DNA of 64,000 bases. Origin: Anadara kagoshimensis. Its lineage: Eukaryota > Mollusca > Bivalvia > Arcoida > Arcidae. How positions within the stretch are numbered: position 1 is the stretch's first letter; the number at the start of each line of letters is the position of its first letter. The stretch spans positions 7,552,678 to 7,616,677 of the forward strand of contig CM037874.1 in NCBI GenBank assembly GCA_021292105.1, written 5' to 3'. The position numbers were made by a program, and so were the translations under genes. Below the pieces are notes generated by a model. It was not told the origin of the DNA. It was given only the letters and a program-made list of their open reading frames with translations, and searched no databases. Below are positions 1,945 through 28,516 of this stretch, in pieces.

Positions 1945-2562
1945 TTACCACAAAAATGTGTCGTCAACAAAGAAGTAAACATCTGCTTCAACAATTTTAG
2001 ACAGTAATTCACCATGGGAATAATATATTCTGTCTTTAAAGTATTTTCTATCGTTCAAATATGTATCCGTGTTGAATAAGTCCCACATGTCATTCGTCTC
2101 ATGGGGGTTTCTATTCCAACTCACACATTTCACTATTTCTTCATTCTGATTCAATTATGAGGTTGTCCTCTGTAACAGCATATAGCATAACAGTGTTCCT
2201 TCAGACATTTGACTTTTTCTTAAAATAATTAAAAACAAAAATTATATCAGTTTTAGTACGTACATCTGTTTACTTACTATCTCGCCTTTAAAAGAGAATG
2301 AAAATAAGGTTATGCCCCACTGAACGCGTGAATGTAGCTCGTTCTTTTGACAAGTGTAACATATTTACTTTTACAAGACTTGCACACTGATATGGAATTT
2401 TAAGGGGAATAATCGAATGGCGCGTAATATAAATTCATTTACAAGGTTTACGAAATAATTCTAGGTTTTGCGTTTACTACATCCAAATATATTCTCACAC
2501 AAGTTAAATTCTTGCAAGCATATTTCTATTTAATGTTTATATGTAAACTAATCAGACGTATA

Positions 2563-5205
2563 GGTCGCGCACGATAACTTGGCACATCCGGGGTTTTTCA
2601 GTTTGTAAATAAACATTGCAGCTCGTTCGATAAATGTTATGTTTTGGCCCATAGTGTATAACGGGGACAAGTGTTGAGAGTTCTATCCTGCTATAATACA
2701 TTTTTTTAATAAAAAAGTTTGATTAAGCCCATTAATAATAGTAATTTTAATAACAATAATGTCATTAATAATAATATATTGTCGTGTGCTATTTTGACTC
2801 TATATTTATTTAATAAAAAGTCAAAATGGAAAATAATAATAATAATTTCTTATTATTTGCTGTATCAAATAATAAATTCTTCACCATGAAATGTATGCTG
2901 AATATATTTAAAACAAGTTACTGAATGGCTTTGCGAAAAATTTTAATTTAAAACTATTTATTTATTAATCTTATGTACTTAGTCTTATTCTGTTTTTGTT
3001 TTTATTTTGTGTCTGGAATTTATAATTGTGCAGCTCCATGCAAGTTGGTAATAGTAAAAATTTCGTCAGCTGTATCAGTCGTATCTTCTTCTGAAATGGT
3101 TGATTCTTCGTCGGCCGTCATTGTAGATGTTTCTTCTTCCTCATCCTCTTCTTCTTCTGTTGCTGTGTCTGTGTCTTCGTCGCTGGAATCGGTTTAAATT
3201 TTAAATTTTGTGAAGCAACATATGATTTTAGATCAGCCCAAATTAATTCTATAGGATTTAAGTCTGCATGATAAGGTGGTAATCTTAAAATTTTATGTCC
3301 ATGTTCTCTTAATATATAATCAATTCTGTAGGAAGGTGGAATAATTTGTTGTTTGCATATTGTAAGTAACTGTGCGCGAACCATGTCTTCTGTAAATTTA
3401 ATGTTGTGTTTTGTGAGCCATTCCTGAATGTCTTTTTTCTTCCACGATGTTGTTGGTTTTTTGTCTTCTTGGACGTTATGATAAGATGCATTATCGACTA
3501 CCAAGACGGAATTTGGTTCAAGGTTTGGAATTAATTTTTTGCGAAGCCATTTAGTGAAATTCTCAGCATTCATTTCATGGTGATAATCACCTGTTGATGA
3601 CTTGGCTTTATATATAAGGCTTGCATTAGGAACAAAACCCTTTTCTGAACCAGCATCAACAACAATAAGACGGTCACCTGCTCCGATTGGAACACTTAAA
3701 CCGTTCCCATCCACGTCATTGCACTTGCTCTCTCCAAGGGACAGCTGATGGGATTTTTGAGACATTTTTGTTTTGCCTCATCAAAGCAATGTTTTACAAC
3801 ATTGATGGCAATTTGTTTTGCCTGTGAATTTAATCTTTTTATTTTCAGACATCTTCTCGGTTATGAAAATCACACGTGTTGCCTCGTTTTCGCCTTATAC
3901 CTATTATACTATATTCTCACATTTTTACGAGGGCGTGACCATTCAACTCGTTCGCATGTTCTAATTAATGGTCCAATTAACTTAATAATTAACATCTCGT
4001 CCCTTTTAACTCTCAGATCCACCCAACGCCATGATATGTTGGAATTCATATCCTATTGTATTATATTATTAATTAGAACAAACACCTGCTGTAATCTCTT
4101 GCATCACAAATTGGAAACTGGTACATTTGATTCACTTTAATTTTGAATCTATTAATAAAAATTATAAATGAATGCATTAATATGAGTTGTGTTGTTGGAC
4201 ATAAAATATTTCACTTGTAAGGAGGAATTGTATTTTTATATTTCGCACAGCGTCATGTGGAGCATTTTGAATTTTAACAGAGAAAAATATTAAATTTAAA
4301 ATTATGCACATGACAACAATATTAACTGTCTATTCCCAGATATGAATAAATAAAATAAATAAATTAAAAAAACAATAAATAAATGAATAAACACAGTAAA
4401 ATTTATTGATGTTGGCATCCTTTTCCAAATTAATATAGGTTTACAGTTTGATTTTTTCGTATGACGCGGCGGTGAGGTACGGATTAATAATAGTGATTAG
4501 TCCCAAATAGTGCTAATATTTTGATTTCTGTATGAAACGAGACGTTAAAATTTTGCCCTGTGCTAATTCTAAATGTAATGTAGTTCTGGTAGAAATAATT
4601 TCCACAAGAATTTTAAAATTTAGGTTGTTCATACATTTACAAGATAGAAATTTATTAATTATTAGCCTGATAGCACATTTAAATAATTAGTATAGATTCA
4701 TTTATTTTTTTTACTTTTTAATTAAAAAGTTTTTATAATAAAAATTAAAAACAAAATTAGATAAAATTAAAAAATATATATGTATGGACCCGGTATTGTT
4801 CGAACTCACTTGTGACAAAATTATATAGCTGTCCACTAACTGTAAGATATGTTACATACCACTGAGCCAAGGACGACAGTAACCTATCCTATCAAATTAA
4901 AGGTGTTAAGGACAAATACCTTGTTATATCTTCAGACAATTCGTTCCACAGTTATGTGGAACTTCACAAAAATTATGCAGAAATGAAATAATTTCATGTG
5001 AATATTTAAAAAGTTTCAAATAAAGAATATAAATGAAAATGTCCAAGATAAGTGGAATATGATATATTATATTTCAACAAAAATATGTATGAAGTGCAGC
5101 ATGGACATTGGCGAGTTGTTCAATGTGCGTGTTTCATGAGTCCGAGTTACAATGTTTATTTACGAAATGAATAAGTCCGGATGTGCCAAGTTATCGTGCG
5201 CGACC
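2563..5205. mobile_element. Tc1/mariner-IS630-type DNA transposon, 2643 bp
   Basis: Both ends carry inverted repeats beginning GGTCGCGCACGATAACTTGG; the first 29 bp are identical and similarity continues to about 63 bp. The flanks show a TA target duplication (2561-2562 and 5206-5207), as expected for Tc1/mariner relatives. Joining the flanks restores the intron start seen intact in copy 3 of the unknown gene (CCTGAATCCA), so the insertion is supported by an empty site. It carries a DDE transposase on minus and a tRNA-like remnant near 4785-4875 (minus: TGGCTCAGTGGTATGTAAC then GAGTTCGAACA). Confidence 0.85.
3118..3765 (-). pseudogene. DDE transposase (IS630/Tc1-mariner type), N-terminally damaged
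   Basis: This frame encodes 215 residues. The catalytic signature is visible: an Asp in LIVVDAGSEKGF (about residues 33-44), the second Asp in VLVVDNASYHN (about 88-98), and the third acidic residue in LPPYHADLNPIELIWADLK (about 157-175). This is the DDE_3 layout used for cut-and-paste transposition. The upstream helix-turn-helix half is missing: a remnant at about 3760-3825 reads AKQIAINVVKHCFDEAKQK in a different frame. The basic, glutamine-rich tail comes from a (TCT)n microsatellite at about 3126-3180. The enzyme would be nuclear; this copy is probably inactive. It lies inside the 2563-5205 element. Confidence 0.8.
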
Positions 5206-5307
5206 TATACCTGAATCCATACCTCTGTTTTATAAATGTAGATTTCCAAATAGTTCACACAGATGATCAATTTCTATTTCAAAAAATTCTTCGTCTAAAT
5301 CGTCCAT

Positions 5308-5578
5308 AACAAACCGTCTTGCAGCTAAGAACTTCGGGTCTTAGAATAAAAAGGCACGCTTTACAAAATATAATATAAATCTTTACTAATGAAATAAGGT
5401 TTCCAATCATTGGATACAGCAGGTGATGGAAGTTTCCACAACGTGACATATGTCCTATAGAAGCAGGTGACAGGTCTGGACGTGCAGCAGGCGCGGACGT
5501 GCAGGGTATGTTTGGACGTGCAGTGTGGACGTGCAATTTCCGCTTCTGCCCCCCCCCTATAAAGTTACGTCTACACTA
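5308..5578 (-). promoter_or_regulatory. 5' block of unknown unit, copy 1, with GGACGTGCA repeats
   Basis: Upstream of exon 1 on minus. GGACGTGCA-like motifs recur four times between about 5475 and 5540 (plus-strand reading: GGACGTGCAG, GGACGTGCAGGG, GGACGTGCAGTG, GGACGTGCAATT). The block is collinear with those at 11690-11787 and 28206-28516 and ends at a shared edge, ACGTCTACACTACT. A role as promoter or as transposase/regulator binding array is inference. Confidence 0.5.
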
Positions 5579-5659
5579 CTAAAAACGTATAAGTTTTAAA
5601 AATCGAGTTGAATTTCATGCTGATTAATGTTCAGTGATTACAGAGAAATTTTTTCTTGT

Positions 5660-9289: not shown

Positions 9290-9340
9290 AAATAAATAGA
9301 TTTTAATAAATCATTAAATAATTAATAACAATATTTAAAA

Positions 9341-9395
<55 letters not shown>

Positions 9396-9463
9396 AATGA
9401 AAATAAAATTAAACACATACTTACCAAAATTGAGATAGTTAAAATTAATAAAAATATTTAAAA

Positions 9464-9498
<35 letters not shown>

Positions 9499-11545: not shown

Positions 11546-11689
11546 TCAACGCGGAAGAAGTTATATATGAACATAAGTAACAAGTGCCCCCAGCAGTAAA
11601 GAAACTCGAAAGAAACCAAGGCAAGACAAAATTCATCAATCCTCTCTTAGACCTTTTCAAGTTACATGGGCTTGGCTGTCATATCGGAC

Positions 11690-11787
11690 AGTAGTGTAGA
11701 CGGAGCTTTTGAGGGGGTTAAGAGTAATATTGCACGTCCACGCTGCACGTCCAAACATATCCTGCACGTCCGCACCTGCTGCAGGTC
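11690..11787 (+). promoter_or_regulatory. 5' block of unknown unit, copy 2, with GGACGTGCA repeats
   Basis: This begins AGTAGTGTAGACGGAGCTTT, the reverse complement of the shared edge seen at 5570 and 28505. The reverse-complement motif TGCACGTCC recurs four to five times between 11730 and 11785. The block continues beyond the SINE at 12128 with CATCTGTTTCTATAGGACAT, matching copy 3. An extra ~110 bp (about 12220-12340) relative to the other copies is of unknown origin. Confidence 0.5.
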
Positions 11788-11799
11788 CACACTTGCCAA

Positions 11800-12127
11800 C
11801 CACTGCGGTAGCTCAGTCGGTAGAGTGCTCGCTCCGTAAGTGGAAGGTCGTGTGTTTGAACCCCGGCCGGGTCTGACCCAAGACTTGAAAGTGTGTAGTG
11901 ACTGTTCTTTCGCCAAGCACTCGGCATTACGAAATGAAGGTCACGGTTCGTTTGGATGGTAACTTAAAATAAAACGAGGTCTCGTGTCACGGTGGGCTTG
12001 GTACGTTATAGAACCCTGCTTTATAATGCCATCAGCGCAACGCACAGGCAAAATTTCTGCGTCTTCGCCTATAGCTGGCGACGTCTCGAAATATTCTTGA
12101 CTGGGACGTTAAACACCATTACTCAAC
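11800..12127 (+). mobile_element. tRNA-derived SINE with 13-bp target duplication
   Basis: The head reads GCGGTAGCTCAGTCGGTAGA (A box) and GTGTTTGAACCCCGGCCGG (B box), followed by a body with TGACTGTTCTTTCGCCAAGC and TATAGCTGGCGACGTCTCG and the tail GGGACGTTAAACACC. Flanks TCCACACTTGCCA (11787-11799) and TCCATACTTGCCA (12128-12140) differ at one base and are the target duplication. Removing the SINE restores the 5' block seen in copies 1 and 3. The same body appears at 30042-30385. Confidence 0.85.
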
Positions 12128-12446
12128 TCCATACTTGCCATCTGTTTCTATAGGACATCCGTCACGTTGTGGAATCTTCCGTCACCTGTTGTATCCAATG
12201 TTTGGAGACCTTATTACAAACTTTTTGTTATAAGTAGACATATTTTCTGGTCGCATTATAAATCTATATTTACAATTACTTCATATTTTGCGTTCTCTGT
12301 GATAAAACCTATTTGCATTATCATACCATTATTGCCATTCAGTGATTGGTTAAGATAGATCTCTTTGCTTTTATCAGAGACATATAAAACCCAAGATTGG
12401 CAACTCCTATATACCGCTATAAGTCCGCAGCGAACTATCGCGGTTC

Positions 12447-13445
12447 GGGGGTATACTTGCAACTATGATAAGGAATTTTATTATTTTTAATTTTTTACTA
12501 AAACTCTAATTGCAACAAGTTTATAATACTTATACCCATTGTAAGAAAAAAGTTGCATACAAATTTGAAATAAATTATTTAGTTTTTACTGAATTTCAAA
12601 ATGAGAGAAAAATTGAAATTTTCATCTTTTGGCGTGTTGGGGGTATACTTGCCACTTTGATAAAGGATTTAATAATTTTAAATTTTTTACTAAAATTCCA
12701 ATTGCAACATGTTTATAATACTTATACCCATTGTAAGAAAAAAGTTGCTTACAAATTTGAAATAAATTAATTAGTTTTTATTGAATTTCAAAATGAGAGA
12801 AAAATTTAAATGTTCATCTTTTGGCGGGTTGGGGGTATACTTGCCACTTTGATAAAGGATTTGATAATTTTCAATTTTTTACTAAAATTCTAATTGCACA
12901 TTGTTTATAATACTAATACCCATTGTAAAAAAAGTTGCATACAAATTTGAAATAAATTATTTAGTTTTTATTGAATTTCAAAATGAGAGAAAAATTGAAA
13001 TTTTCATCTTTTGGCGTGTTGGGGGTATACTTGCCACTTTGATAAAGGATTTGATAATTTTCAATTTTTTACTAAAATTCTAATTGTAACATGTTTATAA
13101 TACTTATACCCATTGTAAGAAAAAAGTTGCATACAAATTTGAAATAAATTAATTAGTTTTTATTGAATTTCAAAATGAGAGAAAAATTTAAATGTTCATC
13201 TTTTGGCGTGTTGGGGGTATACTTGCCACTTTGATAAAGGATTTGATAATTTTCAATATTTTACTAAAATTCTAATTGCAACATGTTTATAATACTTATA
13301 CCCATTGTAAAAATCGATTTGCAGACAAATTTGAAATAAATTAATTGGATTTTAATGAATTTAAAAATGAGAGAAAATGGAAATTTTAATCTTTTGACGG
13401 GTCGGGGGTATACTTCCAACTATGATAAAGAATTTGATTATTTTC
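12447..13445. repeat. Tandem array, ~191-bp period, five to six units
   Basis: The phrase GGGGGTATACTTGCCACTTTG starts units at about 12447, 12639, 12831, 13021, 13213 and 13403; spacings alternate 190 and 192. Each unit contains CATTGTAAGAAAAAAGTTGC and AATTTCAAAATGAGAGAAAA. Middle units are the most alike and the outer ones degenerate, as expected from unequal exchange. It lies inside the 12375-15898 element. The open frames in it are side effects of the repetition. Confidence 0.9.
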
Positions 13446-13523
13446 AATTTCGTGCGCTTCGTCTCTCTCTCAAAATTCTCAAATTCACTAAATTAATATT
13501 AGAACCACATACAAATAAACACT

Positions 13524-13554
<31 letters not shown>

Positions 13555-13636
13555 TTTTTTTGAATTGTCACTTTCATATGTATATATAAAAACCACTTAA
13601 AGGTCACCGGTCACTGGTATCACATTTGGATGACGT

Positions 13637-14016
13637 TCTTGGTTGGTTGGTTGAATGTTGCTTAACGTCGCATCAGCAATTTTTCAGCTATTCGCGACGA
13701 GAACTATTTAATTAATCTCTATGGATTAATCTATGAACAATTTTGTGTATGCATGTGAAGTGCGAGGGTGTTGTATGGTCTGCCTTGTACTAGCGCGCAC
13801 TCAGGGCGACTTTACCGTGCTAACTCACAGAGTCAGTACACCGCAGACAAGCGTACCACTCCCCCAGTCCATTATACTGATACCAGGTGAATCAGTGAAG
13901 GCCAACGGCAAGGAAAATTCACTTTCCCACATGTGGTCCGAGCGGGACTCGAACTCACAGCGGTGAGAGACCCTGGATTTGAAGACTGACGTCTTATCCA
14001 TTAGGCCACCGCGCCC
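13637..14016 (-). mobile_element. tRNA-derived SINE (Arg-tRNA-like head)
   Basis: On minus it starts with GGTGGCCTAATGGATAAGAC (A box) and later TGAGTTCGAGTCCCGCTCGG (B box), an arrangement close to arginine tRNA. A body of about 250 bp follows, and the tail is GATGCGACGTTAAGCAAC with a short (ACCA)n run. The head is complete, but the following body and tail mark it as a SINE and not a tRNA gene. It is inserted within the 3.5 kb TIR element. Confidence 0.75.
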
Positions 14017-14095
14017 TCAAATGACGTTCTTTTCATCCCATTAAAACAAGTGTAATAAAGTTATTATAAGAAAATTTTTATTTATTTTTTATTTT

Positions 14096-14131
<36 letters not shown>

Positions 14132-14856: not shown

Positions 14857-14902
<46 letters not shown>

Positions 14903-15840: not shown

Positions 15841-15977
15841 TGGCCGCGATTTATTACGGGATTTCGTGAAGTTGCCAATCGGGTTTTATATGTCTCTGCT
15901 TTTATATTATATTTGGTAAAGCGTGCATTTTATTCTAAGCTCCGAACTTGTTAGCTTCAAGACAGGATGCAATTTTT

Positions 15978-17480
15978 ATGGACGATTTAGACGAAGGATA
16001 TTTTGAAATAGAAATTAATCATCTGTATGAATTGTTGGATGTATGGATTCAGGTAAGTTTTCATATTATATAAATGTAAGAGAAACATAAATATTTTATA
16101 TATTTTGAAACCTAGAATGATTTTGTAAACCTTGAAAAAGAATTTATATTACGCGCCATACGATTACCCCCCCCCCATATTATTGTAAGCGCGCCAAAAA
16201 TAATATAAGGTCCGTAGGTGGGGAACATCGCTTGTTAGGTGGGTAGAGCTGGACGGACCGGCGGCTTACTTAAAACAAAATGAATAAAAACAATACTAAA
16301 CGCTCTTGACGTCGTTTCTTTTGAAGTGTATTCTATATAGAAATCTCATATAATAATTTTGTTCACATATTAATTAATAATGCGGGTCTCCGCTAAAACG
16401 ATATGTCCGTAAAAGAGTTCACAATAAATAAAAATGTTCACAATAGATATTTGATATGCTGCGTGTATCCGCTTAAGATATAAAAATGTTCAAACAACGA
16501 GTTTAGAGTTGAACGGTAAAATTCCGTGTCAACCTTCTCTCACTCCGGTAGATCCGAAAACCCCAGGTTTCGGGATTCCACGTGGATATAAAGAATATCT
16601 ATTAACCCGAAAAAGATTAATTGAAACCATTTGATTGCATGGTTGATTACCGAAAACTTAAGTACATGTTGTAAATACCCGTACAAACAAACAAATATAC
16701 AAATATAAGACATAGAAATGACATGATTGAGGTAATTAATGTTATATAATAAAAGTGTAAATCAAGGGTTTTAGAAAACGTATTATCTCAAGTCACTGGA
16801 TTAAGATATCAACAAATATCATAGAAAGTAAAGTAAAAACACCTGGAATTTCTTAGTAAAAATGTCAATAAAGATGAAACATATTAAGTAATCGGAATGA
16901 CTAAAATTAACAAAAAGTCCGCTGTTACATTATTTTTCAGTGGGGCTTAACCTTATTATCATTCTTTTTTAAGGGTGCGATAGTCCGTCATTATATGTAG
17001 TAAGCAGATGTATGTACTAAAACTATATAATTTTTGGTTTTTATTATTTTAGAAAAACATACAGAAGATTGTGAGGATTTATGTCTGAATGAATGTGACC
17101 ACTGTTATGCTGTAATTAGTTACAGAGGACAACCTCATAATTGCCCCGTAGATCAGGGGGAAGATTTGGGCTTTGTTGTTGATTTAGAACTTTTATGTGA
17201 GGAAATCGGGAAAAAAATTATAGTGTCATTCAGAATGGGATTGGACGCTCGTCTCTATGGTATGAATGGAGAAATAGTGAAATGTGTGAATTGGAATAGA
17301 AATCCTTACGGATTGGAAAGATGGATAACCTTTAATTTAAATTACCATTTCCCCCATGAGACGAATGACATGTGAGACTTATTCAACACGGATATATATT
17401 TGAACGATAGAAAATACTTTAAAGACAGAATACATTATTTCCATGGTAAATTACTTGATTGTTTGACTTATCTAAAAAAA
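15978..17480 (+). pseudogene. Unknown two-exon gene, copy 2 (most complete exon 2)
   Basis: Exon 1 runs 15978-16052 from MDDLDEGYFEIEINHLYELL to a donor GTAAGT; compared with copy 3 it lacks about 20 bp, which changes the junction phase. Exon 2 begins at 17052 after a TTATTATTTTAG acceptor and encodes CEDLCLNECDHCY (a possible zinc-binding cluster), then PHNCPVDQGEDLGFVVDL, and an aromatic-rich stretch with VKCVNWNRNP. A TGA at 17373 replaces the Trp found in copy 1. Alignment to copy 1 ends near 17458. The family is unknown to me. Repetition of the same gene in three broken copies with different lesions suggests a multicopy, mobile or recently duplicated source locus elsewhere. Confidence 0.6.
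16053..17051 (+). other. Intron of unknown gene copy 2 with an unidentified insertion
   Basis: The first ~120 bases (GTAAGTTTTCATATTATATA onward) and the last ~120 match the intron of copy 3 or copy 1. The middle, about 16174-16930, has no counterpart in them and carries no recognisable coding sequence, so it is probably a further insertion of unknown type. Confidence 0.45.
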
Positions 17481-18355
17481 TGACGAAAGGTTGTACATGT
17501 TTTCTCCTTAATGCTGTTTTTGTTTAACAAACTCCTTAATGTTTTATCTGGAATGATGACAGGTTGTTGGTCTTAACTGGGGAAACTTTAGAACCTCAGA
17601 AACTGATATTAAGTGACAACAGTAGATTATACATAATAGCTAGTAGTTCTGTAACAAGACAGCGATTTTGTGATAAAATACATATGCTAATTATTCAATG
17701 TATTTAAAAAATCACTGAAATAAATTAATTCAGTTATTCAATTAAATTAAACTAATTAATATTTTTATTTATGGTATATAGAATCATTAAACTTAAAATA
17801 AAAAAATCTAGTGACAGTGGTAGTGTAGTTTCATAAATTAGGAAATTTGTTATTTTCAAAGGAAGGAAAAAGGTAAATGTTCATTAAATAGAATCATTTT
17901 TGAAGTGGTTTAGACCAGTAATTAATGACATTTAAATATATTTTTATGTTATTATATTGCATAGTTTTCTACAACTGATGTTTATATTTATATTTAAGCT
18001 GTTGTGATGTTATCTCTACAGTTCATGCTTCAAGTTAAAAAATGTCTCAACGGCATGGCCTATCATCACCTTCAACTTTCCGACCCAACATGTGTGACTT
18101 TTCAAATGTCAAAAAATCTCTAACCAAAAAAATTCACTTGATAAATGACATCTGATAACCAATCTCTTTTGGAAACAAGATACATTAAAATAAGGAGAAA
18201 ATTAAACATTGTAGTAAGTATTGGTAAAATTACAAATGAAATGTGATAATCATCAAGTCATAAGTGAATTTGGTAAAAAATACTTTAAGAAATCTCTTTG
18301 TTCAATAAAAATTATCAAAAGAAAAAAAATGTAAAAGAAAAATAAGTTCAAGAAT
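17481..18355. other. AT-rich spacer, nothing recognised
   Basis: I find no gene, tRNA or repeat that can be supported in this stretch. Confidence 0.4.
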
Positions 18356-18545
18356 ACAACAGTCCAATCCAAGAGTCCAGTCCATGAGTTCAGTCTAAAA
18401 GTCCAGTCCACGAGTCCAATCCAGTCCAAGAGTCCAGTCGAATCCAAGAGTCCAATCCAATCCACATTTTACACCAAAGTCCAATCCAATCCAATAGTCC
18501 AATCCAGTCCAAGGGTCCAATCCAGTCCACATTTTACACTTTGCC
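18356..18545. repeat. Degenerate 10-12-bp tandem repeat (AGTCCAATCC)n
   Basis: The motif AGTCCAATCC or AGTCCAGTCC repeats about fifteen times with irregular spacing; the unit CCAATCCACATTTTACAC appears twice (near 18460 and 18522). The minus-strand frame through it gives a Gly/Leu/Asp/Trp-rich run and is not a gene. Confidence 0.8.
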
Positions 18546-18700
18546 GCTATTTTAGACTTAAGAATGTTGATAGATTGAATCTAGAAATCTGGTTGGTCAT
18601 TTAGGGTGAGGGGTCTCCGTTGTTTTTTGAAATGGACTTGTCCAGTATGGTCAAAGGAAAATTTAGTTAGTCTTGGAGAAAATTAACGATAACTTATATC

Positions 18701-19306
18701 ATGCTACAGAGGAGTTTAATTTCAGTTCTTTTCTTTGGTTTATATTTTACTGTCATTGCTGATCATTATCAGAGATTATGTGTGGAAAGAGACACAAAAT
18801 TAACTTGTTCAGCTAAGGCTTCAAATGGAATCAAGTAAACATAAGGATTACACACATTGAGTTAGCTGTCTGGTTTGAAAAAAATTTGTTAAATCCTTTA
18901 ATTTTCCCAAAACTTAAAAAAGTCACTGGGGCCACGTACTGCGGACAATGGAACCGATTGAAAACTTTAACTGTAAATGGTAAAGACTGCTCATTCAACA
19001 ATGGTCTGGTGGAAAAGAAGTACGATATTAAAAGCAAAGACGAAAACGCAAAATATAAAGAAAATGACATACGGGATGAATTTGTAATAACAAGCGCCAC
19101 AGAAGGAGTGATTTTACTGGGCTGTGTTCTCATAATCATTATAGGTGGTATTTTTGGACAAAAAACTAAAGTACGATTAGATGGTGTTGTGGTAAGACTT
19201 AGATCATCAGTATATAGGCTAACAAATAAAGTGGACAGAATCAATACTCAATTCACACAATCCACCATGTTGGAGGGTGATGAACATGAGACAAGCCTGA
19301 AGAGGT
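18701..19306 (+). pseudogene. Ig-like type I membrane protein ORF, frameshifted
   Basis: An ATG at 18701 opens a hydrophobic signal-peptide-like start (MLQRSLISVLFFGLYFTV), then TKLTCSAKAS with a first Cys. The frame is lost near 18833 (TAA) and resumes one base out of step with ITHIELAVWF, giving the core Trp, then GATYCGQWNRL with the second Cys in the Y-x-C setting of an Ig fold. A charged stalk follows, a transmembrane segment VILLGCVLIIIIGGIFG (about 19108-19160), and a basic cytoplasmic tail to a stop at 19304-19306. The total of about 200 residues with signal, one Ig-like domain, TM and tail fits a small cell-surface receptor. It sits about 90 bp upstream of the Penelope-like frame on the same strand. 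It is intronless over 600 bp, so it is either one exon or a retrocopy. Confidence 0.5.
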
Positions 19307-19392
19307 AACTTGGAGGAGATCGGAGACTTTTAGCTATTTTTTCTTTAGTTAGATCTGTCGTTAAAACTAGGATTGCCAAACTTAAAGGGTCT

Positions 19393-20864
19393 ATGAGTAC
19401 TAAACCGTCTTCAGTACTCAAGGATCCAGAAATCAAGGCAATTCTTACAGACATACACAACAAATATGTTGTTGTCCCAGCTGATAAGGCTTCCAACAAC
19501 ATTATTATCGTTTGTAAGAGATTCTACCTTGAATGTCTTATTAAGGAGCTTGGTTTAGATAGTATATCAAATAACCCTGCATATTCTAGAACTAATTTTA
19601 CCAAAGATGAAGTTCTTTCCAACCATAGGGGAGTTCTCGAGTCTTTTGGTATCAATCTTAAAGAGGAAGATCTTGATCTTCCTTACTTGTATTGGATTCC
19701 TAAACTCCATAAAAATCCATACAAGGAAAGATATATAGCAGGCTCATCTAAATGTACTACTAAATCATTATCGGTAACTCTAACACAAATTTTGACAATC
19801 GTCAAAGATGGTCTTCAGTCTTATTCAGAAAAAGTATATTCTACATCTGGAATCAACCAAATGTGGATTCTAAAAAATTCTAAAGAATTACTTGAACATC
19901 TTGCTTCTAATACTTTATCTCATGTAAAAAGTATAAAATCATTTGATTTTTCTACACTATACACCACAATCCCTCATTCTAAATTGAAAGAACGTCTTAA
20001 AGAAATTATTCACTTGTCTTTCTTCTACAAAAACGGTAAGCCAAGATACAAATATCTGGTGCTGAACAGGGATTCTGGTTATTTTGTCAAGCATCATACG
20101 GATTCCAAACAAAAATATACTGAAGATACCATCAACAAAATGTTGGAGTTTTTGATAGATAACATATTTGTTGTGTTTGGTAATATAGTATTTCAGCAAA
20201 CAATCGGTATACCAATGGGTACAAACTGTGCACCATTGCTTGCTGATTTGTTTCTTTATTCTTACGAAGCAGAATTTATGCAGAACCTTGTTAAATCTGG
20301 AGAAAAACTGTCGCCAAATCATTCAACTCAACATACAGATACATAGATGACGTTCTGTCTCTTAACAATCCTAAATTTGGAGACTATGTAAATGTCATCT
20401 ATCCTAGTGAGCTTGAAATAAAAGACACGACTGATTCCTCAAGTTCTGCTTCATATTTAGACTTACACCTGAATTATGACACACAAGAAAGGCTACATTT
20501 GAAACTTTATGACAAACGTGATGACTTCAATTTTTCTATTGTCAACTTTCCTTTTTTATGCAGCAATATACCTGCTTCTCCTGCTTATGGTGTATTTGTT
20601 TCCCAATTAATACGCTATGGTAGAGCTTGTTCCCACTACGGGGACTTTGTACAACGAAGTAGGCTGCTTGCAAATAAATTGTTGACTCAGGGATATTGCA
20701 AGCCTAGGCTTATCAAGGCCCTCAAAAAGTTTTATGGCCGTCATCACAGTATTGTTGATAAGTTTGATGTCTCTGTGTCCAGGATTGCCTTGATATATTT
20801 GACGTCTCATAGTTCCATGTTCCTTTCACACAATTTTGATTACACACGTGACGGGTGTAGCTAG
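19393..20864 (+). pseudogene. Penelope-like reverse transcriptase, frameshifted
   Basis: Two frames make one protein. The first (19393-20346) has an N-terminal NKYVVVPADKASNNIIIVCK, a finger motif YLYWIPKLHKNPYKERYIAG and QQTIGIPMGTNCAPLLADLF. One missing base near 20317 shifts the frame directly before the catalytic TYRYIDDVLSL, which continues in the second frame (20322-20864) through KLYDKRDDFNFSIVNFPF, a Pro/Ala-rich turn and QGYCKPRLIKALKKFYGRHH. Motif order and the GIPMGT box fit Penelope-like reverse transcriptases. I see no GIY-YIG endonuclease after it; the frame ends at DGCS. The 3' end is shared with fragments at 36028 and 40381 and closes near AGTATGTTTGTTTTT (about 21010). Confidence 0.7.
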
Positions 20865-21010
20865 CTAAACAGGAGGTGCTTACCCTTCCGGAGCACCCGG
20901 CCTCACTTCCCTGGTGGAAGTTCACGTGTCTAACCTAACTTGTCAGTTCCAAAGTTTTTACTTTGCTTCTGGATTGTGATTCGGAAATTGATAAGTATGT
21001 TTGTTTTTGA

Positions 21011-21440
21011 TAATTTGACTCTGATCGAGATTTATTCGATTTTTTTTCATATAATGATAAAGAAATATTTTATAATAACAGATTTTTTATACATTCACTT
21101 TTGTTTCCGATAAAAGTATTCTCTGTTTATATTTTATAATTTTTTTAAATATGATTAATATAAAGATAGAGTTTGTGATTATGAGAGAGAGAGAGAGAGA
21201 ATTATTTTTTGTATATTTTATTTTTTTATTTTTTGTATATTTTAGCTTTGATTTAAACTTAAGTAAAGTTTTTTAATTTTTTAGAGAGAGAGGGAGAGAT
21301 TCATTAATATATTTTTTGTAAAATGAATTATATATTTTTATATTTTTCAGATAAAAGTATTATCTTTTTGCAGTTTTTTTTAATTTATTTTTTGTATCTT
21401 TTTATTTTAACTGATTTAAACTTGGGTAAAGTTTTTTTTA

Positions 21441-21487
<47 letters not shown>

Positions 21488-21640
21488 TTTATATACTTTT
21501 ATGCAATGAATTTTATGTTGTTTATCTTTTATTTTTATACATAAAGGTATTATTTTTTAAAGTTTTTATTTTTTGTATCTTTTTATTTATAACTTTGATT
21601 TTACTCGAGAAAAAGTTTGTTATTTTACAAAATGAATTAT
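21011..21640. repeat. AT-rich tract with (GA)n microsatellites
   Basis: (GA)n runs lie at about 21183-21200, 21284-21300 and 21450-21482, inside a threefold loosely repeated stretch of about 130 bp (TTTAACTTGGGTAAAGTTTTTT and similar). The open frame through the third run is Arg/Glu low complexity and not a gene. Confidence 0.7.
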
Positions 21641-21767
21641 TATTTTATTTTAGTTTTCATACATAAAGGTATTTTGTTTTTCAAACAGTTATCTTGTTTT
21701 TTATTTAAATTCCAAAACACCTGAATAACAGGTGACGGGTTTTAAATTGCATTATTATAATAGTTGA

Positions 21768-22035
21768 ATTTCGGACAATACACTTACACTTATTACTGGA
21801 AAATATGTACTTCTTTTATTTCTTGCTAGTAACCTTAGATGTAAACTTAGATGATATACAGTATTATAAACAATGTGGAACGATGTATTTATATTTAATA
21901 TTTGTATGTATGAAATGTATATTTATTGTAAACATTGTGATGCAGGCATCGGATTTATATTATATGTAAATATACCTCTTGTACCACCTCCGGTGGTTTA
22001 GAGTGAATAAAGTTTGAATTGAATTGAATTGAATA
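21768..22035 (+). mobile_element. 5'-truncated LINE 3' end
   Basis: About 268 bp absent from repeat copy 1. It ends GAATAAAGTTTGAATTGAATTGAATTGAAT: a polyadenylation-like AATAAA followed by a short tandem (TTGAA)n tail, the usual 3' end of several non-LTR elements. No reading frame remains. Confidence 0.65.
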
Positions 22036-22501
22036 ATTGGCCAGAATGTCATGACACAAAGTAAATAGAGGCAATCCGCTTTACATTATATTCAATACTA
22101 AATAAAAAAAGTACAAAAAAGATTTAACTTTCATCTAATCAGGGGTTCGAATCTCATTTACATAAGTTGCGTACCAGAAAAAAAGATTTAACTTTCATCT
22201 AATCAGGGGTTCGAATCTCATTTACATAAGTTGCGTACCAGACATTAACTCGGGTATCGGGACGCCTTGATCTCAACTCATTTCAAAAGAGATTTTCTGC
22301 TTCCCAATCAGTAACATAGGGTCATTATGACATCTGCATAATGATATTTCATTAACTTCATTCAATACCTACCCTTTAAAGACATACCCTTACATTATAT
22401 AAGTTAATGAAATACCATCATGCAGATGCTTTCAGAAATATCCTTACGTTATCTTAGATAATTAGATTGGTCACCTACCACATGCTTTCCCCCGAATTCA
22501 A

Positions 22502-23430
22502 GTCAATTCGACCCCCCACGGTAAATTCGCCCCCACTTTCATCAAATTCGCCCCCCCCCCCCATGTCAAAATCGCCCCCTTTCAAAATCGCCCCCACTTC
22601 TTGCAAATTCGCCCCCATTTTTTTCCAATAACCATATAACAAATAATTTTTTTACTTTTATTTTTTTTTTATAAAAATCAAATAAAAATAATGATACTTT
22701 AGAAATGAAACATATCAATGCATCCATTTAATTAATATGAATTTAACTTTTATGTTCAATTGTATTATTAAACGTAGTCAACGTTGCTTTTGACAAAATA
22801 ATTTTTATAAAATACCGACATATAGTAGAAGCCATTTTAAAAGTGAACAATGCATTTGATGTTAGCAGGAAGAGAGAAATTGTTTCGAAGGAGCGCCTGG
22901 TATGTTGAAAAAGATGTTCTCTCAACGGTACATAATCTATCAATACTCTAATGTTATTCTTTAATAAACGTTACTGAAGTATTTTGTTTTTACTTAATCC
23001 GACTAATCAGCCCACTAAACCCCCATTTTAATTTTTTGACTTTTTGGAGGTTTGTGGACCACAAACCTCCAAAAAGTCAAAAAATTAAAATGGGGGTTTA
23101 GTGGGCTGATTAGTCGGACTAGTTTTTACTGTACCCACTGTTATGATTATAGCAAAATCTTACAAAGGAATTTTGATTTGAATGCGCGACAAAAAACATT
23201 GCAATAAAAACAATACATTACAAATAATTTGTCTGCCATGAGTTATTTAGGCATATCCGAGGTCGTAAAAATAATTTTATGTTACTTTTACAATCTCAAT
23301 AAAAGAAGATTTTTTTTTGAAAAATTTGGGGCGAATTTGCAAAAAGTGGGGGCGATTTTAAACGGGGGCGATTTTGACATGGGGACGAATTGATGAAAGT
23401 GGGGGCGAATTTACCGTGGGGCGAATTGAC
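22502..23430. mobile_element. Long-TIR DNA element (~929 bp), non-autonomous
   Basis: The ends are inverted copies about 110-130 bp long, built from spaced C-rich boxes on the left (AATTCGCCCCC, AAATCGCCCCC) and G-rich boxes on the right (GGGGGCGAATTT, GGGGGCGATTTT). The outermost bases read GTCAATTCGACCCC on the left and GGGGCGAATTGAC on the right. It is absent from the matching place in repeat copy 1 (near 1180-1190). The target duplication is not clean. No transposase frame inside, but a 121-bp palindrome is nested at 22998-23118. Confidence 0.8.
22998..23118. repeat. Near-perfect 121-bp palindrome (foldback MITE, copy 1)
   Basis: The left arm TCCGACTAATCAGCCCACTA and onward is followed by its reverse complement with a single central A at 23058; the arms are essentially identical over 60 bases and would form a long hairpin. 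A diverged relative with the same ends lies at 40754-40865. Confidence 0.9.
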
Positions 23431-23606
23431 CCTTTGATTTACATACAGGTGCATGCATGCCAGGTGATACCTCTCTTTGTGTTTCAAACCCGTTTAATTT
23501 GCATACAGGTGCGCATTTAATTTGCATACAGGTGCATCCACATTGGACACAAAATTTAGCGAGACTCAAGTTGCCCTTAACTACTAACACTCTGTCTTAC
23601 TGAAGT

Positions 23607-24020
23607 TCATTGGTTAAATGTAAGTGCAATACCCGTTTTTGACGGAACTAGAGTTTGTTTTCCATGCGGGATAAACCCGACTTCTTATGTCCACCACTTG
23701 AAATGGTTTCTTGATATTCACGAATATATTCCTACCTAAGTCGATCATGACTCCCATTTCATAACTGTTAAAAACATATTTTTTGTCAAAATTATTAATG
23801 CATTATTGAATTTCATTCCAGTGTGCCTGGTGTAGTAAATGCCATTGTTCTACACTTAAAAGCAATTCCCTTTTTGGTAGGATAAGGACCCGTATTCTCC
23901 TGCACCATATTGACGAATGTGTATCAAAATATGGTCGTTATATCTTTGTGCAACCACAAAACGCTCATTTCTGATGTTTAGAAGACACAAATCTCTTCTG
24001 ACTGTATTAGCTTCATTTCC
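23607..24020 (-). pseudogene. PC4-like (transcription coactivator p15) domain fragments
   Basis: Two pieces on minus. The first (24020 to 23813) reads NERFVVAQRYNDHILIHIRQ and, after one frame change, PTKKGIAFKCRTMAF, ending TPGTLE. The second (23764 to 23607), after a TTTTTAACAG acceptor-like site, reads GVMIDLGRNIFVNIKKPFQ, VVDIRSRVYP and, out of frame, PSKTGIALTFNQ. A beta-rich stretch, VDIR or HIRQY, then P-x-K-x-GIAL is the core pattern of the PC4 single-stranded DNA-binding domain. The two may be tandem domains of one gene. Both are frameshifted. They sit left of unit copy 3 on the same strand, where exon 2 would be expected. Confidence 0.45.
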
Positions 24021-24168
24021 TAAAATACAAATCAAAATTATTCATTAAAGTTTAACCATAAATGCGACAACAGAGTTTTCATTAATAAAATAGGTCTTAC
24101 CTATAGTTCATGACTTGTTTATGCCCTTAAAAATTTAATATATTTTTTCTGATAATTTAATTTTCAAA

Positions 24169-24206
<38 letters not shown>
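24169..24206. repeat. (GT)n microsatellite
   Basis: An uninterrupted GT dinucleotide run of about 17 units within the intron sequence of unit copy 3. Confidence 0.95.
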
Positions 24207-24401
24207 ACTTTAATCCCGCTGACATATTATTTTGACAATTTAAAATTCTCAACTTTTAAAAGGAATGATAATAAGGTAATGCCCCACTGATTACATGTAA
24301 TATAGTGCGTTCTTTTGAACATGTACAGGTAGACTGTTTAAAGATAATACGGGATTTTAAGGGGGGGGTAATCGTATGGCGCGTAATATAAATTCTTTTT
24401 T

Positions 24402-27400
24402 CACCTCACCTCACCTCACCTATCCTCTTCGTGCCCATTGGCACATAAGGTCCCGATACACCTCCTCCAATTTGGCCGGTCTTTTGCTGCTACTCTTGCC
24501 TGTGCCCATGTGGTCCATCCCAGGTGGTCTCTTTCCTGCTCTGTTGCTCTCCTCCATGTTGTTTTTGGCCGACCTACTTTCCTTCTGCCCTCCGGATGCC
24601 ATGTAAGGGCTGTTGTGCATATCCTCTTACTGCTGTTGAATCGGAGGATATGCCCAATCCATTTCCACTTTCTCATCATTATGGTTGCACTGATGTTTTT
24701 AGTATTTGTTCTTTCATGTAGCTCTTTATTTGTTATTTTATCTGGCCATCTGACTCAAAGTATGTTTCTCAAGCACCTGTTTTGAAATGTGTCCAGCTTT
24801 TTCTTGTCTCTTTCTGTGGTTTTCCAAGTTTCGCTTCCGTAGGTGAGTACTGATACAACCAAGCTGTTAAACAATCGTATCTTTGTTTGGATTGAAAATT
24901 TTGAGGTGTTCCAAATCTTCTTTAATCGTCTAAATTGTTGTTTTGCTTTTCCTAATCTACTGTTTATATCCTGATCGCAACCTCCTTCTGTTGTTACAAT
25001 GCCCCCTAGATAAGTGAAAGTCTCTACATCTTCTATTTGTTGATCGCCTATTTTTACTGGGTCTTGTATGGTGGTGTTGAGCCTCATTACTTTAGTTTTT
25101 CTGGAGTTTATTTTAAGGCCAACCTGCTTTGCATTTTCATGTAGTTTTTGAGTTTTGCTTTGAATGTCTTGGTATTTTGATGACAGGAGTGCCAGATCGT
25201 CGGCAAAATCTAAGTCTTCAAGTTTAGTTGTAAACTTCCACCTTAATCCAGTTGGTTCCCTTTCGGTTGTCTTCTTCATGATGTAGTCGATGACGAGTAG
25301 GAATAGGAATCCGGACATAGTGCAGCCTTGTTTCACACCAGTTGTTACTCTGAACCACTCTGATTCCTCACCATCAACTATTACAGAACACTGGAAGGTG
25401 TCATAAAGCAGCTTTATCATCCTGATTAATTTTTCTGGTATGCCATAGTGCTTCATGATGGACCATAGGATGTCTCTGTGAATTGAGTCGAACGCCTTTT
25501 CAAAGTCGACGAAGTTGATGAATAGTGGTGCATTCCATTCATTACACTGTTCAAGAATGTTTCTAAGTGTAAACAGTTGTTCAGTGGTATTTCTCCCCTT
25601 TCTGAATCCAGCTTGTTCTTCTCGCAGTTTGTCATCTATTCCATTTTGGATTCTCTGAATGATCACTCTAGAGAAGATCTTGCTTGGCACTGATAGTAGG
25701 GTTATGCCTCTGTAATTGTCGCATATTGACTTGTCACCCTTTTTCGGGATTTTTACAATCAATCCTTTGTTCCAGTCATCTGGTATTGTTTCTTTGTTCC
25801 ATATAGCTGTAAACAGTTTTTCAAGATACTTTACAGTTGTTGTCAAATCTGCCTTTAGAATTTCAGTTGTTATACCATCAATTCCTCCTGATTTTCCATT
25901 CTTAAGCTTTTTCATTGCCTTTATAATTTCATCTTTCTCTATGACACCTGTGTTTATCTCATCTATCAAGTTGTCGTCATTCTCTGCTATTAATGGATCG
26001 TCTGGTTGAGGTCGATTCAGGACATTGCTGAAATGCTCTTTCCATCTGTTCTTTATTTCAGTCTGGCTGCTCAGAATGTTCCCATCTCTGTCTTTTATTT
26101 TTGACGTTTCTGTTCTCTTCTCATTACTTAGCACCCGTGTAACCTCGTAAACTGTTTTCATATGACCACTATTGGCTGCTGTTTCTGCCTCTTCTATTAG
26201 GTCTTCTGTCCAATTTCTTCTATCTTTTCGAATGTTGGACTTTACCTCTTTGTCTATCCTACTATATTTTGATCTTAGGTTCTCTTTCAATCTTTCGGAT
26301 CTGCTGTTGTTTAGTTGCTGTTTTACTTGTTTTCGTTCATCAACAAGTTTCCAGGACTCTTTACTTATCCATGGTTTATGTCCTCTTTTCTTTACTCCGA
26401 GAATGTTCTTTGAAGTTTCAATATAGCCCTTTTCCATTGTTTCCCAGATATCCTCAACTGATTCCATGTGCTCTAGTACCTGGAATCTATTTTTAAGTGC
26501 GATGGAGAATGCTCTCTTACTCTCAGGCTGTTGTAGCTTGGTGGTGTCAAATTTGATTCTTCGATTTTCTGTTTGTTTCTTAAATGCCTTGAGTTTGATT
26601 CTGATCTTACAACGTATGAGCTCATGGTCACTGCTTGCATCTGCTCCTCTCATTGATCTTGTGTCCAAACATGCTGTTCTGTGTTGTTTGGAAATAAGCA
26701 TGTGGTCAATTTGGTTTTCTGTCCTTCCATTCGGTGATATCCATGTAACTTTGTGTCGAGGTTTATGTGGAAAGATGGTGCCGGTTATAACTAAGTTGTT
26801 TATTTCACAAAATTCCACTAGATTTTCTCCATTTTCGTTTCTGGCTCCTATTCCATGTTTTCCCATTACACTTTCATGGCCTTTGTTGTCACTTCCAACC
26901 TTTGCATTTAAGTCACCGATCACTAGCAAGATGTCGTGTTTGGGAATGCTGTTAATCACCTCTTGCATATGTTCAATAAATAGTTCTTTTTTCTCTTCTT
27001 TGCTATCGTTTGTTGGTGCATATGCTACTATTATGCTTATTTTCAGTGTGGAAGTGTACAATCGAACATACAACAGTCTTTCATTGATTGGTTTCCATTC
27101 TAACACTGATTTATTCGCTCGTTTTGAAAGCATTATTCCAACTCCTTCCTGATGTAAGTCATCCTCTCGTCCTGAGTAGAGGACAGTTTTTCCACTCTGT
27201 AGCGATATTTTTCCATTTTTGGTCCATCTTACTTCATTAAGTCCAAGAATGTCAAGTTTGTATCGATCCATTTCTTTTTCTACTTGTGCTGTTTTCCTGC
27301 TGAGTACATAGTTCTTACATTCCAGCTTCCAATGAAAATGTTGTCATTTGGTGTGCAAAATGACATCGGCCTGTGAGCTTCCTCTCGGCTTTCCCCCACA

Positions 27401-28018
27401 AGCGTCATGTTGTCCGCTGCACCGGTATCTCTAACAAGGAGAGGAATGGTCTCTCACTGTGTTCTTTGTGTATCGTGGATTTCCGTAATCGATTCTTTTT
27501 ACCATACCCGGTGATTAGCCGTGCATGAACCCCCTGGACTCGGAGGGCCAGTGGTTTTCTGTTAGGATTTTCCTTCCTTAGATGCTCCCATTACCCTGGT
27601 GACAGGGTCATCTCCCTGGATTTTCTGTCTGGATTTACTTCCATAGCCTTTGACTCAAAAGTCTAATCACAAGGCAGTGATACTATTTAACCCATAGCTG
27701 GGGCAGGGTTGGTGAGAGCCAGGGCGTGTCCACACACCGATGGGCCTGCACTCTGCACCTCTTGGGTCCTTGCTACTCCGAGATCCCCTTCAACTTAGCC
27801 TTGAGTACTAGACCCAAGTTACCGTGCATTGCCACGAGGAGGCATTAAAGGAGTCTTGGTAGTGTAGAGGCTATGTACTGGCAGGAAAGATTTACGCACT
27901 CGACTCTCCTTTTTACCTACAAGTAGGCTAGCCAGTGACAACAAAGATCTAGAGGCGTTCGGTCTCTGCCGTACTAGACGCATATCACTACCCTGTGGCG
28001 TCACCACCACTAACACAC
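24402..28018 (-). mobile_element. RTE-like LINE, nearly full length, 10-bp target duplication
   Basis: ATTCTTTTTT occurs at 24392-24401 and again at 28019-28028, flanking the element exactly. The sequence on either side matches copy 1 of the host unit as one uninterrupted stretch (GCGTAATATAAATTC then AAGGTTTACAAAATCATTC). The element is on minus and its 3' end carries a short (GGTGA)n tail rather than poly(A), as in RTE-type LINEs. Length is about 3.6 kb. It includes a ~600 bp 5' region, one long endonuclease/reverse-transcriptase frame and a shifted C-terminus. Confidence 0.9.
24412..27414 (-). pseudogene. RTE-like LINE ORF: APE endonuclease plus reverse transcriptase
   Basis: The main frame (27271 to 24755) encodes 838 residues. 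The endonuclease shows LGLNEVRW (catalytic Glu), IGDLNAKVG and SDHELIRCK. The reverse transcriptase follows with LKNGKSGGIDGITTEILK, GITLLSVPSKIFSRVIIQRI, INFVDFEKAFDSIHRD, TGVKQGCTMSGFLF and LDFADDLALLS, so the catalytic box is FADD. Two frameshifts break the gene. An upstream piece (27414 to about 27280) holds the endonuclease start IFIGSWNVRTMYSAGK one base out of step. A downstream piece (24679 to 24416) holds KWIGHILRF, HPEGRRKVGRPKTTWRRA and CANGHEED, the usual RTE C-terminus. With those repaired the protein would be about 990 residues. A recent insertion is likely given the exact flanks. Confidence 0.88.
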
Positions 28019-28111
28019 ATTCTTTTTTCAAGGTTTACAAAATCATTCTAGGTTTCAAAATATATAAAAATATTTATGTTTCTCTTACATTTATATAATA
28101 TGAAAACTTAC

Positions 28112-28205
28112 CTGAATCCACAGCTGATCCATACCTCTGTTTTTCCAACAATTCGTACAGATGATCAATTTCTATTTCAAAATATCCTTCGTCTATATCG
28201 TCCAT
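28112..28205 (-). pseudogene. Unknown two-exon gene, copy 3: intact exon 1
   Basis: Exon 1 reads MDDIDEGYFEIEIDHLYELL then KQRYGSAVDS for 31 codons plus one base, ending at a good donor GTAAGT. Phase 1 fits the exon 2 acceptor in copy 2 (G plus AA makes Glu). The exon is acidic and likely starts the protein. Its intron continues to the left until it is broken by the RTE-like LINE, and resumes at 24391 down to about 24240. Exon 2 is not found; family A repeat and PC4-like sequence occupy that side. This is the reference copy for exon 1. Confidence 0.6.
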
Positions 28206-28516
28206 TAAAATTGTATCCTGTCTTGAAGCTAACAAGTTCGGAGCTTAGAATAAAAATGCACGCTTTACCAAATATAATATAAAAGCAAGGAGACCTATCT
28301 TAACCAATGAAATAAGGTCTCTAAACATTGGATACAACAGGTGATGGAAGTTTCCACAACGTGACAGATGTCCTATAGAAACAGATGGCAAGTGTGGACG
28401 TGCAGCAGGTGCGGACGTGCAGGGTATGTTTGGACGTGCAAGGTATGTTTGGACGTGCTGCGTGGACGTGCAATATTGCTACCCCCCCCCAAAAAAAAAA
28501 GCTCCGTCTACACTAC
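28206..28516 (-). promoter_or_regulatory. 5' block of unknown unit, copy 3, with GGACGTGCA repeats
   Basis: GGACGTGC occurs five times between 28396 and 28471, spaced about 15-18 bases. The block then ends with AGCTCCGTCTACACTACT at about 28516, the edge shared with copies 1 and 2. The sequence between the motifs and exon 1 (TAAGATAGGTCTCCTTGCTT on minus) is the empty site for the 3.5 kb TIR element of copy 2. A promoter role is inferred from position. Confidence 0.5.

What the first reader, a model, noticed from the sequence alone, without database searches (positions are those of the whole stretch)
1945..28516. Unclassified dispersed unit: three broken copies of a two-exon gene with a shared 5' edge
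Copies at 1945-5578 (minus), 11690-17480 (plus) and 24240-28516 (minus) share a 5' block ending at GTCTACACTACT, exon 1 (MDDIDEGYFEIEIDHLYELL in the best copy) and the intron start; copies 1 and 2 also share exon 2 with its WNRNP tract, and copy 2 alone keeps the Cys cluster CEDLCLNECDHCY. Each copy is damaged differently, so none derives from another after damage. An intron-bearing gene spread in both orientations with a common outer edge is either a DNA transposon of an unknown kind or a fast-duplicating gene with its promoter. I cannot place the protein in a family.
Basis: partly seen in the sequence, partly recalled or inferred. Interest (0 to 1): 0.75.

Follow-up and report, generated by a model that had tools for sequence, protein, structure and literature searches.

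The report
Ends of two decayed Maverick elements
The three repeated gene pieces are the ends of two dead virus-like jumping elements (Mavericks) of a shortened kind that seems to depend on its full-length cousins, so this is a new variant of a known thing rather than an unknown transposon.

Summary
Copies 2 and 3 are the two inverted ends of one 16.8-kb element (11690-28517) that starts AGTAGT, ends ACTACT and sits in a 6-bp target duplication, TCGGAC. Copy 1 is the right end of a second element whose broken integrase and ATPase tail lie just left of the window. Relatives occur genome-wide as inverted pairs; 9 of 12 examined have exact 6-bp duplications. This is Maverick/Polinton. The 'exon 1' peptide is an upstream ORF in the terminal repeat; behind it lie a start (MDS) and a splice donor that serve different genes: a double-PC4 protein (copy 3), a BIR/IAP protein in kin, or the unclassified Cys/WNRNP module (copies 1, 2). 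The lineage is about 7 kb, with its own integrase and packaging-type ATPase but no polymerase or capsid candidate: 0 of 66 such integrase hits lie within 20 kb of one, against 31 of 43 for other integrases. One short element's outer 120 bp equal those of full-length Mavericks. Best reading: dead copies of helper-dependent mini-Mavericks; whether they are packaged as satellites is open. A palindromic polymerase-only Maverick turned up in passing.

The parts
11690..28517 (.). Element A: decayed Maverick, both ends present (copies 2 and 3)
   Evidence: Outward-facing inverted ends AGTAGT/ACTACT and 6-bp TSD
11684..11689 (+). Left target duplication TCGGAC
28518..28523 (+). Right target duplication TCGGAC
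11690..16172 (+). Left terminal repeat of A with leader and start of intron, in pieces 11690-11797, 12128-12374, 15888-16172
11799..12127 (+). Later insert in the left end: SINE-like repeat (other copies at 30042 and 48249 in the window)
   Evidence: ARAGORN finds no tRNA; SINE is my reading
12375..15887 (.). Later insert: element with ends CAGAGACATATAAAACCC..., holding 192-bp tandem repeats
15978..16052 (+). Leader of copy 2: MDD... upstream ORF, then ATGGATTCAG and splice donor
   Evidence: and sequence
17053..17375 (+). Second exon of copy 2: Cys cluster plus WNRNP, ends at a TGA where copy 1 has TGG
23583..24019 (-). Second exon of copy 3: broken double-PC4 protein
   Evidence: tblastn with the L041 PC4 protein E 1.9e-33; Pfam on the window piece only 0.015, below cut-off
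24401..28010 (-). Later insert in copy 3: LINE with RVT_1 and endonuclease, between copies of AAAAAAGAAT
28011..28517 (-). Right terminal repeat of A, leader 28205-28101 and start of intron
1273..5580 (-). Right part of element B (copy 1); its INT' and ATPase' relics lie left of the window (L078)
1945..2207 (-). Cys/WNRNP exon of copy 1
2558..5210 (-). Later insert in copy 1: TA-flanked element with 68-bp inverted ends and a DDE_3 ORF (3118-3777)
   Evidence: (DDE_3 E 1.4e-14)
5205..5307 (-). Leader of copy 1

Best explanation
The unit is the end segment of a short (about 7-kb) Maverick/Polinton lineage. Shown: its members start AGTAGT, sit in 6-bp target duplications, and carry a retroviral-type integrase (INT'), a packaging-type ATPase with zinc fingers (ATPase'), a double-PC4 gene at one end and a BIR gene or the Cys/WNRNP module at the other. 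Both ends carry the same leader: an upstream ORF, then the start MDS, with a splice donor for the PC4 and Cys genes. Shown: the window holds element A with both ends and the right end of element B, both dead and invaded by later transposons. Inferred: INT' inserts linear copies with a 6-bp staggered cut; DNA synthesis is done in trans by the protein-primed polymerase of full-length Mavericks in the same genome, since the short lineage has none and shares termini with them. Inferred and weaker: the ATPase steers packaging into the helper's capsids; the leader drives both end genes together; BIR blocks host cell death and PC4 helps transcription or single-strand handling.
For: Ends and TSD of A. 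12 pairs examined genome-wide: 9 exact 6-bp TSDs, 1 with 5 of 6, 2 without an edge on both sides. Pfam on kin: PC4 3.4e-16 and 3.1e-20, BIR 9.9e-11 to 4.2e-6, rve 1.6e-10 plus Chromo, Adeno_IVa2 1.5e-7 and 6.4e-6 for the short ATPase. The Cys exon of copy 2 has kin in 18 fetched loci other than the window copy and its duplicate: 17 with INT' (84-98% aa) and 1 with ATPase' beside it; 14 of 18 also show the leader at E 1e-3. Relics of INT' and ATPase' left of copy 1 in the order seen in kin. INT' hits at 60% or more: 0 of 66 with PolB or capsid-candidate hit within 20 kb; below 60%: 31 of 43. Outer 120 bp of short C19 equal those of long C3 and C14; short C8 is 91% to long C9a over 330 bp. dN/dS 0.13-0.15 for INT' (C7, C8, C17) and 0.15-0.17 for PC4.
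Against: Element A itself keeps no integrase or ATPase, so its class rests on ends, PC4 and kin. The genome lists are capped: 107 of 1416 INT, 75 of 212 PolB and 140 of 164 capsid candidates were scored, and hits are not all separate elements. PolB and capsid labels rest on motif and position that I recall; Pfam and PDB gave no support. Only three long elements were read. C7, C17 and window ends have no long partner among those read. INT' pairs with C19 give dN/dS 0.35-0.61 and the whole ATPase' ORF 0.37-0.60. No transcript, particle or mobilisation was seen.
Confidence: 0.75

Rival explanations
1. The short elements are ordinary non-autonomous Maverick transposons: integrated by their own integrase and copied in trans or by host repair, with the ATPase as leftover or with another role and no packaging.
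For: No particle or capsid gene in the lineage; Polintons without capsid genes are known (PMC4028283, passages).
Against: The ATPase' core of 171 codons shows 0 nonsynonymous and 2-5 synonymous changes among C7, C17, C19, though C8 pairs give 0.28-0.42; in the published capsid-less Polintons nine had also lost ATPase and protease.
Confidence: 0.4
2. The short elements are satellites: packaged into full-length Maverick capsids by their own ATPase, as phage satellites redirect packaging (comparison recalled).
For: Retained, constrained ATPase' and INT' without PolB or capsid candidate; shared termini with two long types.
Against: No direct evidence of packaging; small sample of long elements; capsid label not confirmed by a family model.
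Confidence: 0.35
3. A host PC4/IAP-type gene family spread by ordinary duplication with its promoter.
For: PC4 is among expanded families in Manila clam (PMC5499747, passages); BIR+PC4 IAPs in hard clam (PMC7831173, passages).
Against: Fixed termini, 6-bp TSDs, paired inverted ends, linked integrase.
Confidence: 0.02

Closest known systems
Maverick/Polinton (Polintoviricetes; animal adintoviruses)
   Same: AGTAGT/ACTACT ends, 6-bp TSD, retroviral-type integrase with chromodomain, packaging-type ATPase; full-length kin in this genome also have an adenovirus-type protease and PolB-like and capsid-like genes
   Different: About 7 kb, no PolB or capsid candidate, introns in end genes (none seen in intact vertebrate Mavericks, PMC8097293, passages), leader and start inside the terminal repeat, PC4/BIR/Cys cargo
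Capsid-less Polintons (PMC4028283)
   Same: Polintons that lack the capsid gene
   Different: Nine of those also lack ATPase and protease; here the ATPase is kept and PolB is missing
Ginger DNA transposons (PMC2836005, abstract in listing only)
   Same: Integrase-bearing DNA elements
   Different: Here a packaging-type ATPase and Maverick-type ends; not compared by sequence
Virophages, polinton-like viruses and phage satellites (recalled)
   Same: Small elements that may exploit a larger relative
   Different: Those keep a capsid gene (virophages) or are bacterial; dependence here is inferred only

Membership tests
Maverick/Polinton | (AGT)2//(ACT)2 termini | tested here: met
   Window element A, and both ends in 10 of 12 pairs examined
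Maverick/Polinton | 6-bp target site duplication | tested here: met
   TCGGAC for element A; exact in 9 of 12 pairs, 5 of 6 bases in one, two without both edges. Not testable for B
Maverick/Polinton | Retroviral-type integrase | tested here: met
   rve 1.6e-10 in C7 and 2.4e-8 in C14; broken relic beside copy 1; absent from element A
Maverick/Polinton | Packaging ATPase | tested here: met
   Adeno_IVa2 1.5e-7 and 6.4e-6 in short kin, Pox_A32 2.1e-5 in long C14; absent from element A
Maverick/Polinton | Protein-primed PolB | tested here: not met
   Absent from the short lineage: no such ORF in four short elements and no hit near 66 INT' hits (capped lists). Present as PolB-like gene in long kin by recalled motifs only
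Maverick/Polinton | Capsid genes and protease | tested here: not met
   Not found in the short lineage. In long kin: Peptidase_C5 1.9e-4; capsid by position only. So the window elements are Maverick-derived, not complete Mavericks
Maverick/Polinton | 15-20 kb length | tested here: not met
   Short kin 6.7-7.0 kb; element A is 16.8 kb only because of later inserts
IAP (BIR) family | BIR domain | tested here: not met
   Met in kin but no significant BIR hit in the window copies
PC4 family | PC4 domain | tested here: met
   Kin 3.4e-16 and 3.1e-20, two copies each; window copy by homology to kin, 1.9e-33, own Pfam score below cut-off

The most novel reading that the evidence does not exclude
This genome holds a helper-satellite system of animal Mavericks: a constrained 7-kb lineage that has dropped polymerase and capsid, keeps its own integrase and packaging ATPase, carries the termini that a helper's polymerase reads, and places an anti-death (BIR) or PC4 gene behind a leader built into the terminal repeat. 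A palindromic polymerase-only Maverick integrated with its own target duplication would be a fossil of protein-primed linear replication, like adenovirus defective genomes (recalled).
Probability: 0.3. Interest if true: 0.82.

Novelty: new variant of a known kind. Interest (0 to 1): 0.58.

Why it matters
Mavericks are held to be virus-like, yet their particles have not been observed (abstract of PMC8097293 as shown in search listings). A lineage that keeps integrase and packaging-type ATPase under constraint without polymerase or capsid candidate would make trans-replication and trans-packaging, and so the existence of capsids, testable in living animals. It also suggests that part of the PC4 and BIR expansion reported for clams may be Maverick cargo rather than host genes (inference; sequences not compared).

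Tried and rejected
Host gene family: rejected by termini and TSDs. BIR in the window copies: no significant hit; the window's left gene is the Cys/WNRNP module. Cys/WNRNP protein: no Pfam family at E up to 1 for the WNRNP part, best 0.02 (zf-BED) for the Cys part; best PDB match 0.015, Bax1 endonuclease, not relied on. PolB and INT' scans of viral contigs confirmed no relative. PolB-like and capsid-like genes had no Pfam match at the thresholds used (0.1, 1) beyond weak, unrelated ones, and none of use in PDB. Structure prediction of the window exon was never accepted. ATPase' and PC4 genome-wide counts were not obtained. Paper searches touching BIR, PC4, satellite or palindromic forms of Mavericks: no title or abstract in the lists describes them; I read only the passages cited, so I do not claim they are not in print. 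Pairs not examined for TSDs include C7 at 45.43 Mb, C19 at 39.81 Mb and C10 at 29.93 Mb.
Full report
WHAT IS THERE. The window is C18:7552678-7616677 of a 1.115-Gb genome in 36 contigs. The three copies are real. Copies 2 (+) and 3 (-) face each other: their edges at 11690 and 28517 both start AGTAGTGTAGACGGAGC and are flanked by TCGGAC, at 11684-11689 and 28518-28523. They are the two ends of one 16,828-bp insertion, element A. Its two ends differ by 28 substitutions in 463 aligned bases over three blocks (10 of 108, 6 of 91, 12 of 264), about 6%. The ends of C19, C7 and C14 are 99.7% alike and those of C17 94.7%, so A is comparatively old.

DAMAGE. A's left end is split by a SINE-like repeat (11799-12127) and by an element with 192-bp tandem repeats (12375-15887). 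Its right intron holds a LINE (24401-28010, RVT_1 5.4e-35) between copies of AAAAAAGAAT. Its interior holds ORFs that look like a Penelope-type reverse transcriptase (recalled; RVT_1 5.5e-4, below cut-off) and no core Maverick gene that I could find except PC4. Copy 1 holds a TA-flanked DDE_3 element (2558-5210).

GENOME-WIDE. A search with the right-end block gave 43 hits, many in inverted pairs about 5-7 or 17 kb apart. I examined 12 pairs, the window's included. Nine have an exact 6-bp duplication beside AGTAGT: window TCGGAC, C17 GTCAAG, C19 CTACCC, C9a GACATC, C9b TAACAT, C3 CCTAAT, C14 AAAACA, C8 ACGATT, C7 CATACG. C10 matches in 5 of 6 bases. C8 at 43.55 Mb and C2 gave no edge on both sides. 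Vertebrate Mavericks are described with 5'-(AGT)2//(ACT)2-3' ends and perfect 6-bp TSDs (PMC8097293, passages).

TWO SIZE CLASSES. Long (about 17 kb): C14 and C9a carry a PolB-like gene on the left; ATPase, integrase with chromodomain, capsid-like genes and a BIR gene on the right. C9a also shows an adenovirus-type protease (Peptidase_C5 1.9e-4). PolB and capsid names rest on motifs and position that I recall; Pfam and PDB searches did not confirm them. Short (6.7-7.0 kb: C7, C8, C17, C19): PC4 gene, ATPase with zinc fingers, integrase, two small ORFs and a BIR gene. Short integrase and ATPase are 47-49% and 33-35% identical to the long ones, so the short class is not a recent deletion product of the long ones read here.

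THE CYS/WNRNP MODULE. The copy-2 exon gave 78 hits (89 of 89 candidates scored). Of the 20 loci fetched, 2 are the window copy and its duplicate; of the other 18, 17 carry the short integrase (84-98% aa in their pieces) and 1 the short ATPase next to it, and 14 show the leader at E 1e-3. So this module takes BIR's place in part of the lineage. Other hits hold a longer WNRNP protein without a Pfam match.

ELEMENT B. Just left of the window (L078) lie an ATPase' tail (66-85% aa by piece) and a broken integrase (71-85% aa by piece, no match for residues 105-185), in the order ATPase', INT', then the window's Cys exon, leader and edge at 5580, as in L053. About 6.9 kb separate INT' from the window part; that stretch was not analysed.

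THE LEADER. In kin the MDD... peptide ends LHL-stop, and about 10 bases on comes ATGGATTC. At the PC4 end it reads ATGGATTCAG|GTAAG and an acceptor precedes GAAATGAAGC, giving MDS-G-NEANTV; the BIR gene starts MDS with no intron; the Cys gene has the same donor and its own acceptor. So both ends carry the same leader and differ in what follows. This is read from sequence; no transcript was seen.

TEST OF THE SHORT LINEAGE. With the C7 integrase as query there were 109 hits, with the C3 PolB-like gene 84, with the C14 capsid candidate 142. Of 66 integrase hits at 60% identity or more none has a PolB or capsid hit within 20 kb; of 43 below 60%, 31 do (18 PolB, 31 capsid). The lists are capped (107 of 1416, 75 of 212 and 140 of 164 candidates scored), some hits are pieces of one gene, and the Fisher value (1e-17) treats hits as independent, which they are not. 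Of the 32 hits at 85% or more, 12 read 385-386 residues without a stop.

TERMINI. Over the outer 120 bp short C19 is identical to long C14 and C3 (94% over 330 bp). One-ended short-type loci C3:21.0 Mb (INT' 98%; BIR) and C13:41.4 Mb (ATPase' 76% and BIR) have the same type (98-100%). Short C8 and long C9a are 79% over 120 bp and 91% over 330. C7 and C17 are 90% over 120 bp, but the window's right end is only 43-50% to them beyond the shared first 20 bases; no long partner of this type was read. The PolB-like gene of C9a is 38-63% identical by piece to that of C3, while integrase, ATPase and the penton-like gene of C9a and C14 are 96-99% identical and the main capsid piece 94%, its C-terminal pieces 64-96%. 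This fits termini that go with the polymerase, but only three long elements were read.

CONSTRAINT (Nei-Gojobori). INT' 0.13-0.15 among C7, C8, C17; pairs with the broken C19 gene 0.35-0.61. PC4 0.15 and 0.17, one pair without synonymous change. BIR 0.25-0.48. ATPase' whole ORF 0.37-0.60; its 171-codon core has no nonsynonymous change among C7, C17, C19 (2-5 synonymous) and 0.28-0.42 with C8. Small ORF 0.27-0.94. For long C14/C9a: integrase 0.21, capsid candidate 0.54.

MECHANISM. Shown by ends and TSDs: Maverick-type integration. Likely, not shown: copying in trans by a protein-primed polymerase. Open: whether the ATPase packages DNA into a helper's capsid (about 0.35) or is remnant or re-used cargo (about 0.4).

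COMPARISON. Mavericks make up 1.69% and 1.93% in the two columns of a repeat table in PMC8905726 (passages). Polintons without capsid genes are known; nine such also lacked ATPase and protease (PMC4028283, passages). PC4 and transposase families are among those expanded in Manila clam (PMC5499747, passages), and a BIR+PC4 IAP type is reported in hard clam and mussels (PMC7831173, passages). These may be Maverick genes; I compared no sequences.

PALINDROME. C3:3285028-3302117 (TSD CCTAAT) has two arms of about 8.25 kb that differ by 3 substitutions and 7 gap openings, against 11-13 substitutions to the C14 arm. It carries the PolB-like gene twice and, of the genes searched, nothing else. The unlike flanks and the TSD argue against a fold-back read artefact.

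LIMITS. Host not named; no structure prediction; window elements dead, function read from kin.

Noticed in passing
L039/L040 (C3:3285028-3302117): Nearly perfect palindromic Maverick: arms of about 8.25 kb with 3 substitutions between them, PolB-like gene on each arm, TSD CCTAAT.
   Followed up: partly
L010, L011, L014 (C18:8.01-8.04 Mb): The window's element ends recur about 0.45 Mb away with the same flanking sequence, so this is a segmental duplication or an assembly duplicate, not new insertions.
   Followed up: no
L076/L077 against L042/L043: Two long Mavericks share a nearly identical right half but carry PolB-like genes only 38-63% identical: halves have been exchanged.
   Followed up: partly
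L067-L074; window 1945-2207 and 17053-17375: WNRNP protein of about 150 residues, no Pfam family, present at many places in the genome.
   Followed up: partly
window 12375-15887: Element with 192-bp tandem repeats; its repeat part gave 88 hits genome-wide, a lower bound (39 of 3081 candidates scored).
   Followed up: no
window 7591-8943 (-): 450-aa ORF with a MULE transposase domain (1.9e-14) and a weak FLYWCH match.
   Followed up: no
window 19309-20864 (+): Two ORFs like a Penelope-type reverse transcriptase (recalled); RVT_1 5.5e-4, below cut-off.
   Followed up: no
window 52220-52960 (-) and 57017-57859 (+): Long ORFs that look like host exons; not searched.
   Followed up: no
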